Virus record (IMG/VR): IMGVR_UViG_3300010883_000698
Coordinates: 1 to 20,099 of that record
DNA length: 20,099 bases
Reading direction: 5' to 3' (one strand)
Source: a virus
Shown: positions 15,049 to 20,099 of the stretch, in pieces
Numbering within the stretch: the first letter of the stretch is position 1
Layout: every line of letters begins with the position of its first letter
The notes under the pieces: generated by a model
Databases searched by the model: none
Seen by the model: only the letters and a program-made list of their open reading frames with translations
What the model was told of the DNA's origin: nothing
Made by a program: the position numbers and the translations under genes

Positions 15049-15456
15049 ATGTCCATAGATATTGTTTACTTCTCGAATCATTCTGGCAATACTAAGAGAT
15101 TTGTGGAGAAGTTAGATGGAAATTGTATTCGGATTCCTATTAGGGATAGCGATATTGGGCAGCGCTTTGTGGGTAACGAGTATGTACTTTTTGTACCTAC
15201 TTATGGTGGGGGTAGTGAAAAGTCTGCAATCCCCAGACAGGTTCGACGTTTTCTAAACGTACCTGAAAATAGAGCTTTGCTACGTGGTGTAGTAGGGTTT
15301 GGAAACACCAACTTTGGTGAGCACTTTTGCAAGGCGGCAGACCTGGTCTCCCGTAAAACAGGTGTTCCAGTAATTGCCAAGGTAGAGATATTTGGAACAC
15401 CAGAAGATGTAGAACGAGTTAAAGGACGGTTGAAACTACTATATGGAACAGAATAA
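15049..15456 (+). CDS. nrdI: NrdI flavodoxin-like protein
   Basis: 135 aa. NrdI supplies the oxidant that assembles the di-manganese tyrosyl radical cofactor in NrdF. The FMN phosphate loop [11 protein letters not shown] (8-18), the acidic strand [10 protein letters not shown] and a second flavin loop [11 protein letters not shown] are as expected, and the length matches the family. AGAGAGG at 15034-15040 precedes the ATG by eight bases. It overlaps nrdE by 14 bases. No nrdH glutaredoxin gene is seen, so host thioredoxin or glutaredoxin probably reduces the enzyme. Confidence 0.9.
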
Positions 15457-15793
15457 GATAAGCTATCATGAGCTAAACGCCATGCTAAATATGTACGACG
15501 AGAACAATCAAATTCAATTTGGAAAAGACAAAGAGGCAGCTAAGGCATACTTCCTAGACCACGTAAATCAGAACACCGTTTTCTTTCACACACTAGAAGA
15601 GAAGCTAGAATACCTTGTTGAAAATGAATACTACGACAAGACCATCCTGGATCAGTACTCCCCAGAGGACACCAAGGATCTATTCAAGCACGCTTATTCT
15701 TATAAGTTTAGATTCCCAACCTTTGTTGGGGCATACAAGTTCTATACTCAGTATGCACTAAAGAACTTTGCTGGAGACCGTTACCTAGAGTGA
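15443..15793 (+). pseudogene. nrdE: NrdE N-terminal fragment, ended by in-frame TGA
   Basis: 116 aa up to a TGA at 15791-15793. The sequence follows the class Ib NrdE N-terminus closely ([44 protein letters not shown]) and stops in the conserved element GDRYLE-(stop)-FEDRVV, where relatives have Arg at the stop. The reading frame continues unchanged past the stop into the rest of NrdE, so no frameshift is involved. A C-to-T change in CGA would produce it. It contains no catalytic residue. Whether it is a dead fragment, a separately made subunit piece, or part of a readthrough product cannot be decided here. Confidence 0.88.
15791..15793 (+). other. In-frame TGA interrupting nrdE
   Basis: GAG TGA TTC, at codon 117 of nrdE. 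Upstream and downstream coding are in the same frame (15443 and 15812 differ by 369 = 123 codons). TGA also ends the polymerase gene, the 52-aa HTH gene and the 94-aa gene in this window, so general reassignment of TGA is unlikely. Confidence 0.95.
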
Positions 15794-15811: not shown

Positions 15812-18507
<2,696 letters not shown>

Positions 18508-18522
18508 TTAAATAAGTTGAAG

Positions 18523-18560
18523 AAAGAGGGGGGCATGGCTTAGGCTGTGTCCCCCTTTTT
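18523..18560 (+). terminator. Strong intrinsic terminator after nrdF
   Basis: GGGGG at 18528-18532 pairs with CCCCC at 18551-18555; pairing continues inward with G-U, C-G, A-T and a GC pair to a four-base TTAG loop (18540-18543), a stem of about 12 pairs. A run of five T follows at 18556-18560, with AAAGA on the other side. It lies 15 bases after the nrdF stop and separates the replication/nrd block from the last gene. Confidence 0.9.
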
Positions 18561-18573
18561 AATACATAAACCC

Positions 18574-18589
18574 TAGTATAATAGTATAA
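18574..18589 (+). repeat. Tandem TAGTATAA repeat at promoter
   Basis: TAGTATAA occurs twice head to tail (18574-18581 and 18582-18589), perfectly. It doubles the -10-like element and might be a protein-binding site or a replication-slippage duplication. Confidence 0.8.
18577..18582 (+). promoter_or_regulatory. Candidate -10 box for the last gene
   Basis: Perfect TATAAT at 18577-18582 with a second -10-like TATAAG at 18585-18590, created by a tandem repeat. Only a T-rich, poor -35 (the terminator tail) lies at the proper distance, so an activator or phage-specific factor may be needed. Position, right after a terminator and before a Shine-Dalgarno, is the main support. Confidence 0.45.
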
Positions 18590-18624
18590 GGACACTTCCA
18601 GCTACCCCATACTAGGAGGATGAA

Positions 18625-20099
18625 ATTAAAACGTCACTCCGTGCTGTTGCAGCACTTTCATTGGCATTCTTGCCTATATTTGGCGTGCTCGAACCAGCCC
18701 ACGCTGTAGACAGTATTGTTGTAACATCCCTAGAAGACGATGGAACAGATGGTACTCTTAGGTGGGCCATTGCAGAATCAAACGCTGGACTTACATTTGA
18801 CAAGATTACCTTTGGAGTTAGCGGTACAATAAACTTAGCATCTAGTTTACCAGGGATTACCCGTAATGTTACCATAGAGGGGCCAGGAGAAGCAGCACTA
18901 ACCATCGACGGAGGAGATCTATATTCGGGATTGGTTCTTCAGGGCAAGAACATGACCATAGGTGGCTTAACTTTTAGCAACATGTACAATTCTAGTGGGC
19001 AGTCAGGATCTGCTATTTGGCTGGTAAGGGGAACAGTATACGTTAATAACGTTACGGTTACATCAAGTACAACAGCCATTGCTACGAAAGAAGGTGGGTC
19101 ATACATATACATAAACTATGGAACGTTCACAGGAAACACCACCGCACTATTCTCTAATCATGGTGGCACCCCAACTACCCCATCTGAAGATGACAACGCC
19201 TACGACAACAGAATTCACGTCTCTAATTCACTCTTTGAAAACAACAACACAGCGGTGTACGGTGAAAGAACAATACTAATAGACAGCTCTGCCTTTAACA
19301 GTAACAGCACAGCATTCTTAATGCGTGGTCTTAATAAGCATAGGGTAGTTAACTCCACATTTAGTGGCAACAGCGTTGGTGTTAATGTTTCATCTTATTG
19401 GCCCAACTTCCCTGGATATTTGTCCTCACCATACATAAACACAATCATAACGGGAAACACCTTTGCTGACAATACAACGGCAATTAGTCTTAATGCTAGG
19501 CACAACAACATCTATACACAGGTTGGTTCTAGTGTATCCAATAACATTTGGGATGAGGCTGGAACATTTATATATTCAAGCGAAGGTTCCTCTGCATTTA
19601 CTGACGGCTTAGATGCACGTGAGGGTGCAGAGTATTACGCTATAAACAATACATCTAGTGTCCCACCACCACCAGAGCCATCAATATCTGCACCAACTAA
19701 TCTTTCTGTAACTGTTAATCAGGATGGATCCGTAAGTCTAACTTGGGACGCATCAGTAGTTAATGAGACTGCATATCTTAACTACTACGTAATAGCCTGG
19801 AACACTGCAGATTCTGGATGGGCAATCACAACCACAAATACCTATGGCACTATCTCAGCCTCAAACTTTGAGAATACTGGCGGATTTGATACTGAGTACC
19901 TATTTAAGATTCGTGCAGATGACAATGACAATAGGATTTATGTATGGTCAGAGCCAGTAACAAACATAATGGTTTCAGTTACTGGACCTTCCGAAGAAGA
20001 GCTAGCCCAGGCCGAAGCAGACAGGTTAGCTGCAGAAGAACAGGCAGCAGCAGACCAAGCAGCCGCAGACCAAGCGGCAGCGGATCAACAAGCAGCAGA
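18625..20099 (+). CDS. Secreted beta-helix/FN3/Ala-rich repeat protein (3' partial)
   Basis: 491 residues visible, still open at the window edge. AGGAGG at 18614-18619 stands five bases before ATT 18625; no ATG, GTG or TTG lies between the in-frame TAG (18613) and the signal peptide. Residues 1-27 form a Sec signal peptide (MKTSLRAVAALSLAFLPIFG... ending AHA). About 30-345 is a right-handed beta-helix: VVTSLEDDGTDGTLRWAIAE opens it, followed by GTINL, TIDGG and many Asn/Thr/Ser turns. VPPPPEP (346-352) links to an FN3-like domain (about 355-452; LTWDAS, YYVIAW, YLFKIRA). From 455 an Ala/Glu/Gln coiled coil carries three AAADQ repeats. Likely an exported surface or adhesin-like protein, unusual in a phage. 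A one-base loss after ATG 18620 is the other start explanation. Confidence 0.85.
   Translation, partial: MKTSLRAVAALSLAFLPIFGVLEPAHAVDSIVVTSLEDDGTDGTLRWAIAESNAGLTFDKITFGVSGTINLASSLPGITRNVTIEGPGEAALTIDGGDLYSGLVLQGKNMTIGGLTFSNMYNSSGQSGSAIWLVRGTVYVNNVTVTSSTTAIATKEGGSYIYINYGTFTGNTTALFSNHGGTPTTPSEDDNAYDNRIHVSNSLFENNNTAVYGERTILIDSSAFNSNSTAFLMRGLNKHRVVNSTFSGNSVGVNVSSYWPNFPGYLSSPYINTIITGNTFADNTTAISLNARHNNIYTQVGSSVSNNIWDEAGTFIYSSEGSSAFTDGLDAREGAEYYAINNTSSVPPPPEPSISAPTNLSVTVNQDGSVSLTWDASVVNETAYLNYYVIAWNTADSGWAITTTNTYGTISASNFENTGGFDTEYLFKIRADDNDNRIYVWSEPVTNIMVSVTGPSEEELAQAEADRLAAEEQAAADQAAADQAAADQQAA

What the first reader, a model, noticed from the sequence alone, without database searches (positions are those of the whole stretch)
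18625..20099. Exported adhesin-like protein carried by a phage
A Sec signal peptide, a long right-handed beta-helix, a proline linker, an FN3-like domain and an AAADQ coiled coil together resemble cell-surface proteins, not virion tail spikes, which carry no signal peptide. It is its own transcription unit after a strong terminator, the layout of a moron. It could change the infected cell's surface (superinfection exclusion, aggregation) or be a novel secreted depolymerase or decoy.
Basis: partly seen in the sequence, partly recalled or inferred. Interest (0 to 1): 0.7.

Follow-up and report, generated by a model that had tools for sequence, protein, structure and literature searches.

The report
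Phage stalked surface protein, AUU start
The gene belongs to a large, unrecognised family (at least 343 uncultured viral contigs, apparently phages of actinobacteria) of exported, stalked, apparently membrane-anchored proteins encoded beside the lysis genes; many copies start translation at AUU, AUC or AUA instead of AUG, and the most likely job, not yet tested, is to coat or mask the infected cell's surface.

Summary
In detail: signal peptide, right-handed β-helix, Pro linker, FN3-like domain, Ala-rich coil, all cut off by the contig end. Three contigs carry the whole gene (815-830 aa). It ends in a conserved helical domain, a TM-like segment and a basic tail; no sortase motif. That C-terminal module occurs in 343 viral contigs, with no match found in the phage records, PDB or two pattern-limited genome scans. 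Heads differ between members: PA14 lectin-like in 33 of 51, β-helix+FN3 here. It is not a moron. It sits after terminase/RNR genes and overlaps or abuts a conserved ~59-aa two-TM protein, then a holin-like protein and an M23 endolysin. In three divergent phages a similar surface protein appears fused to a relative of the small protein. Unexpectedly, the start codon is AUU (18625). Of 88 non-redundant members with an assigned start, 52 use AUU/AUC/AUA, all 52 with TATAAT-like box 33-48 nt upstream; 36 use AUG/GUG/UUG, none with it. Best explanation: a low-dose, late, membrane-tethered surface protein that binds envelope glycans, probably masking the receptor against superinfection and readsorption. 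Anatomy and start codon are well supported by comparison; function is inference.

The parts
17542..18507 (+). nrdF (RNR small subunit), the gene upstream in this lineage
   Evidence: PF00268 E 7e-94
18523..18560 (+). strong intrinsic terminator between nrdF and the gene
   Evidence: fold -28.8 kcal/mol, z -6.0
18577..18582 (+). TATAAT -10 element of a putative promoter
   Evidence: a TATAAT/TATACT lies 33-48 nt before the start in all 52 non-redundant AUU/AUC/AUA members and in none of 36 AUG/GUG/UUG members. The consensus scanner found no -35/-10 pair
18614..18619 (+). Shine-Dalgarno AGGAGG, 5 nt before the start
18625..18627 (+). AUU start codon; in-frame TAG at 18613-18615 upstream, next in-frame canonical codon is a TTG inside the signal peptide
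18625..18705 (+). signal peptide (residues 1-27, AHA|V)
   Evidence: sequence pattern; same position in relatives. No SignalP run
18706..19614 (+). right-handed beta-helix ectodomain (approx. residues 28-330)
   Evidence: low-confidence model, consistent fold hits
19210..19614 (+). divergent cassette inside the beta-helix (residues 196-330): 60-61% nt identity to L002/L004, flanked by blocks of 90-93% and 98%
19657..19686 (+). Pro-rich linker SVPPPPEPSI
19687..19965 (+). FN3-like domain
   Evidence: PF00041 E 1.1e-4, under its cut-off
19987..20097 (+). start of the Ala-rich coiled-coil stalk, cut by the contig end; relatives continue with coil, helical C-terminal domain, TM-like helix and RRIK tail

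Best explanation
It is a phage-encoded surface-display protein, made late with the lysis genes. Export by Sec (inferred from sequence) and anchoring by the C-terminal hydrophobic helix with a basic tail (inferred) leave the N-terminal beta-helix/FN3 head (or, in relatives, a PA14 head) outside, held off the membrane by an Ala- or Pro-rich stalk. The neighbouring ~59-aa two-TM protein is its membrane partner (inferred from gene overlap and apparent fusion). The head binds the host's surface glycans, most likely the phage's own receptor, blocking superinfection and readsorption of progeny to debris (inferred). Where the gene opens its transcription unit, an AUU/AUC/AUA start is kept; by analogy with infC, pcnB and S. 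aureus genes this should hold its translation low (inferred). Shown here, by comparison of sequences: the anatomy, the context and the conserved AUH codon. Not shown: localisation, timing, binding and effect.
For: Architecture and anchor; hydropathy median 1.92 over 77 C-termini; no sortase motif in 139 C-termini. Family size: 343 viral contigs. Lectin-type heads: PA14 in 33 of 51 and GLEYA in 10; PA14 found once in each of 7 of 12 larger records. Context: ~59-aa TM protein in 71 of 78 loci, M23 endolysin cluster in 52, holin-like in 49, terminase upstream in 40 (annotation). Apparent fusion of a surface protein to a two-TM tail in DSL-LC01, L179 and L180. Heads differ between members with similar C-termini, and a 135-residue cassette of the beta-helix diverges sharply, as expected for a binding surface under allele exchange. 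Start codon. Host: WhiB family genes (PF02467 in L004 and L025; cluster in 39 loci), which PMC10611076 states are exclusive to actinobacteria and their phages; terminase closest to Streptomyces phages.
Against: No binding partner, location or timing was measured. Late expression rests on gene order only. The phages' tail-fibre genes were not compared with these heads. Superinfection-exclusion proteins are usually made early (PMC9586334), whereas this gene sits with presumed late genes. The TM-like helix is Ala-rich, and AlphaFold confidence is low there. The basic tail is encoded by AGG/AGA codons that double as the next gene's Shine-Dalgarno, so it may partly be a by-product.
Confidence: 0.42

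Rival explanations
1. Lysis accessory: the stalked protein and its two-TM partner act in envelope rupture, the head gripping or cutting a surface polysaccharide so that the outer layers open when the endolysin acts (a functional counterpart of spanins or LysB).
For: Position in the lysis region with holin-like protein and M23 endolysin; apparent fusion with a holin-like-sized two-TM protein; a beta-helix head is the fold of many polysaccharide lyases.
Against: PA14 and FN3 heads are binding rather than cutting domains (established knowledge); strong diversification of the head is not typical of lysis proteins; a low-efficiency start suits a stoichiometric rupture protein poorly (inference).
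Confidence: 0.22
2. Adhesin: makes infected cells or lysis remnants stick to neighbouring cells or particles and so brings progeny to new hosts.
For: Architecture like stalked adhesins of Gram-positive bacteria; PfbA pneumococcal adhesin among fold hits; GLEYA/PA14 domains.
Against: No direct evidence; the same anatomy serves masking equally well.
Confidence: 0.15
3. Virion component (tail spike or head decoration) with an unusual leader.
For: Beta-helix resembles tailspikes of HK620 and P22; weak tail-protein PHROG match over the FN3 region.
Against: Signal peptide, C-terminal TM-like helix, lysis-region position, coupling to a two-TM protein.
Confidence: 0.06
4. The AUU is not a start; translation begins at a downstream TTG/ATG and the true product lacks the n-region, or the frame is entered by frameshift.
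For: Canonical codons exist inside many of the signal peptides; the window and L004 have an out-of-frame ATG next to the Shine-Dalgarno.
Against: Six of 28 distinct AUH members show no canonical codon in the 59 codons after the AUH, and most have none upstream in frame; the Shine-Dalgarno sits at a steady spacing from the AUH; L059 has a stop codon directly before its ATT; the out-of-frame ATG is absent from L002/L003.
Confidence: 0.06

Closest known systems
T5 Llp and similar superinfection-exclusion proteins (PMC9586334)
   Same: Phage protein exported to the envelope to block the receptor and stop readsorption to debris (the proposed function here)
   Different: Llp is a small outer-membrane lipoprotein; this is a large stalked protein without lipobox, with an apparent C-terminal anchor, in the lysis region
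Cryophage T9SS-exported PA14 protein (PMC7468147)
   Same: Variable phage gene for a secreted PA14-domain protein thought to use the host export system
   Different: That one carries a Type IX sorting domain for Bacteroidota; here a Sec signal peptide plus C-terminal membrane helix in presumed actinophages, no T9SS domain found by Pfam
Lysis cassettes of Gordonia and mycobacterial phages (PMC9671378; PMC13056207, abstract only)
   Same: Endolysin next to several small TM, holin-like proteins
   Different: In PMC9671378 a text search found no PA14 or fibronectin; one small signal-peptide protein (Amok gp23, 102 aa) and one signal+TM protein (DumpTruck gp33) are reported
Non-AUG starts of infC, pcnB and S. 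aureus cvfC1/ccpN (PMC13009471 and its reference to Binns & Masters 2002)
   Same: Conserved AUU/AUA start with strong Shine-Dalgarno; cvfC1 is first in its operon; the S. aureus starts give about 10% (up to 30% in one case) of the AUG yield
   Different: Here in a phage surface-protein family, with AUU, AUC and AUA interchanging; no expression measured
Gram-positive stalked surface proteins
   Same: Signal peptide, head domain, Pro- or Ala-rich stalk, C-terminal hydrophobic helix, basic tail
   Different: No LPXTG-type sorting motif in 139 C-termini

Membership tests
Superinfection-exclusion lipoproteins (Llp type) | lipobox signal peptide | tested here: not met
   Lipobox-like pattern in only one member with an assigned start (L050); the L003 protein has no Cys. 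The window's signal peptide has no Cys
Superinfection-exclusion lipoproteins (Llp type) | blocks the phage receptor | not testable with these tools
   needs infection assays
Sortase-anchored surface proteins | LPXTG-like motif before the C-terminal helix | tested here: not met
   0 of 139; the window's own C-terminus is missing
Phage tailspikes | beta-helix fold | tested here: inconclusive
   listed hits almost all beta-helices, best E 2.8e-3, model pLDDT 47
Phage tailspikes | no signal peptide or membrane anchor | tested here: not met
   signal peptide and, in relatives, TM-like C-terminus
PA14-domain lectins/adhesins | PA14 domain | tested here: not met
   not in the window protein; present in 33 of 51 relatives
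FN3-containing proteins | FN3 domain over the curated cut-off | tested here: inconclusive
   22.8 bits against a cut-off of 25
Genes with AUU-type starts (infC, pcnB, cvfC1, ccpN) | conserved AUU/AUA/AUC codon with Shine-Dalgarno at start distance | tested here: met
   52 of 88 non-redundant members; starts partly assigned by hand, see full report
Genes with AUU-type starts (infC, pcnB, cvfC1, ccpN) | translation actually initiates there and is limited by the codon | not testable with these tools
   needs reporter fusions or N-terminal peptides
Moron | accessory gene, scattered among relatives and independent of neighbours | tested here: not met
   conserved beside the same two-TM, holin-like and endolysin genes

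The most novel reading that the evidence does not exclude
A widespread two-component phage system: a diversifying, membrane-tethered lectin-like coat protein and a conserved two-TM partner, produced with the lysis genes and dosed by a selected non-AUG start plus a structured 5' leader, which remodels or shields the surface of dying actinobacterial cells. It would be a new kind of phage surface-display module, and a phage gene family that depends on AUU/AUC/AUA initiation; I found no report of one in three literature searches, which cover open-access papers only.
Probability: 0.3. Interest if true: 0.85.

Novelty: new variant of a known kind. Interest (0 to 1): 0.7.

Why it matters
A family in at least 343 viral contigs had no Pfam model over its defining domain and no match to it in 50,697 phage records. 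It offers a tractable test of how phages of uncultured actinobacteria manage superinfection or lysis, and of why selection would keep a poor start codon: AUU, AUC and AUA interchange, and no AUG/GUG/UUG start was found where the -10 element is present. Gene callers limited to ATG/GTG/TTG miss this start and cut the signal peptide, so such proteins are easily mis-annotated.

Tried and rejected
Moron layout: rejected by conserved context. Phage-encoded IF3: PF00707 not found in 12 larger records, which may be incomplete. Special initiator tRNA: no tRNA with an unusual anticodon for AUU/AUC/AUA initiation in the 14 loci scanned. AUH starts as a general habit of these phages: a screen of 1363 ORFs gave 60 candidates not flagged as family; two are the L002/L004 copies of the gene itself, and I read the rest by eye as internal or chance sites, without a formal test. 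Leader hairpin as a Shine-Dalgarno mask: expected from folds seen by eye, but in the hairpin clade the GGAG is more open than with a shuffled 5' arm (0.76 vs 0.42); in the window lineage it is somewhat more paired (0.15 vs 0.28), not clearly so (a first version of that script failed). Hairpin in the window: not found by the R1 model, z about 0. C-terminal domain in the PDB or by fold: no match. Homology of the juxtamembrane domain with DSL-LC01: not detected by hhalign. Heads shared with the phages' own tail genes: looked for only with PA14, one match per positive record. The fold search was run against the PDB only, not the viral library.

Full report
What is there. The window is a 20,099-bp virus record. 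From 18625 to its end it encodes 491 aa of an exported protein: signal peptide, beta-helix, Pro linker, FN3-like domain, start of an Ala-rich coil. Three other contigs hold the complete gene (815 to 830 aa), N-terminal part 87% identical. In L003 the coil runs about 222 aa (50% Ala), followed by a conserved helical domain with the signature NVGADMSPxxRE, a hydrophobic helix and a basic tail. AlphaFold2 on 45 members gives an all-helical model of modest confidence (pLDDT 67), without a fold or sequence match in the PDB.

The family. A search with that C-terminal domain found 119 viral contigs and, with a broader profile, 343; at most 80 per scan were fetched and read, some near-identical. tblastn of the domain against 50,697 phage records gave nothing. 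Two scans of 84,980 bacterial and archaeal genomes gave nothing, but these need a short exact peptide pattern first and are weak negatives. Members with a complete N-terminus begin with a signal-peptide-like stretch and end in the same module, but the heads differ: PA14 in 33 of 51 aligned members, GLEYA in 10, FN3 in 10; the window has the beta-helix type. Members with more than 60% identical C-termini can have unrelated heads. Between the window and its closest relatives, residues 196-330 of the beta-helix are only 60-61% identical in DNA, while the blocks on either side are 90-93% and 98%: a replaced or fast-changing cassette. The cassette borders were chosen by eye from the alignment. The FN3 block has dS 0.04-0.15 against about 0.96 for nrdF, so recombination is likely.

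The neighbourhood. In 78 loci a ~59-aa protein with two hydrophobic helices follows directly or overlaps (71 loci), then commonly a holin-like protein (49) and an M23 endolysin (52); terminase lies upstream in 40. In this lineage the RNR genes lie between terminase and the gene. 'Holin-like' rests on a weak holin PHROG match (E 0.001 to 0.004) beside a strong match to a PHROG annotated 'nuclease'. The Arg codons of the basic tail are mostly AGG/AGA and can supply the next gene's Shine-Dalgarno: an SD-like motif lies in the last eight codons of 96 of 105 members. In DSL-LC01, assembled from Dishui Lake and predicted to infect Actinomycetia (PMC10611076), a similar surface protein (FN3 and one head region related to family members, best E about 1e-10) carries a C-terminal extension with two hydrophobic helices that hhalign pairs with the ~59-aa protein (probability 89%, 37% identity); I chose that 55-aa stretch by eye. 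L179 and L180 have the same extension by eye. The juxtamembrane domain of DSL-LC01 is not detectably homologous. I take this as suggestive that the two products work together.

The start codon. 18625 is ATT, 5 nt after AGGAGG, with an in-frame TAG at 18613; the next canonical codon is a TTG in the hydrophobic core of the signal peptide. The same holds in the nearest relatives. How the count was made matters. Starts were first assigned by script as the candidate (ATG, GTG, TTG, ATT, ATA, ATC) with the best Shine-Dalgarno in the first 40-50 codons. After seeing the sequences I overrode this by hand for 18 loci of the first set; 17 of those hand choices are canonical codons and the eighteenth (L077) came out as TAC and was dropped. 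In the second set I moved two (L142, L150) to an upstream codon and set 12 aside because the automatic pick did not look like the start. I printed 11 of the 12 afterwards (L172 was left out, it had given the same output line as L171): most have an AUG or GUG in a plausible place, a few such as L137 and L138 are unclear, and by eye none shows a TATAAT at the expected distance. Promoter presence was not part of the rule, but these choices were made unblinded, with the upstream DNA in view, and there was no second rule to compare with. With them, and after removing duplicate leaders, 88 members remain: 52 AUH (44 ATT, 5 ATC, 3 ATA), all with TATAAT or TATACT in the allowed range, and 36 canonical, none with it. 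The Fisher value (1.6e-25) treats members as independent, which they are not: on a tree of 54 members of the first set the label needs about 3 to 5 changes. So the pattern is strong but rests on few independent events, and it coincides with having an own promoter, so the two cannot be separated. What does not depend on my choices: six of 28 distinct AUH members show no ATG/GTG/TTG in the 59 codons after the AUH, and most have none upstream in frame. A screen of 1363 ORFs for the same signature in other genes gave, by eye, no convincing case. In S. aureus, conserved AUU/AUA starts give about 10% of the AUG yield, up to 30% in one case (PMC13009471).

The leader. In 25 aligned members, chosen because a hairpin was visible, the transcript should begin with a hairpin ending at the Shine-Dalgarno: 92% of cells paired, 11 cells with changes on both sides against 4.2 in shuffles (0 of 500 as high), and better than all slid versions. 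Ten of the 11 come from one G-C/A-U pair and may be one or few events. A covariance model finds the element at most once per contig, only before this gene, and Rfam has no match for it in the four sources searched. The window and its nearest relatives lack it. It leaves the Shine-Dalgarno core open, so I favour a stabilising or insulating role, unproven.

Function. Signal peptide, TM-like helix (median hydropathy 1.92, minimum 1.16), no sortase motif in 139 C-termini and a single lipobox-like pattern (L050) point to a protein displayed on the infected cell. Binding-type heads, head diversification and lysis-region position fit receptor masking or shielding best; lysis accessory and adhesin remain open. 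No step of the function is shown.

Noticed in passing
window 15791-15793: nrdE of the window is interrupted by a single in-frame TGA where L002 has AGA; nonsense change or sequencing error.
   Followed up: partly
window 15049-15456: Flavodoxin-like gene (phrog_883, E 2.4e-27) between terminase and nrdE, possibly an NrdI-type partner of the RNR.
   Followed up: no
L015 4319-5320: An exported-looking ~330-aa protein with a weak Ig-like (Big_1, E 0.0096) match just upstream of the family gene; its cluster occurs in 11 loci.
   Followed up: no
L004 7206-8321: A 371-aa exported-looking protein downstream that resembles a subtilase by eye; no Pfam match.
   Followed up: no
L002 8329-9576: A 415-aa protein with a lipobox-like leader (LSGC) and weak DUF1570 similarity (E 0.011) downstream of the gene.
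   Followed up: no
leaders of the window, L003, L015, L113, L114: The window lineage shares a leader motif like ATTCCAGCTACCCC instead of the hairpin; meaning unknown.
   Followed up: partly
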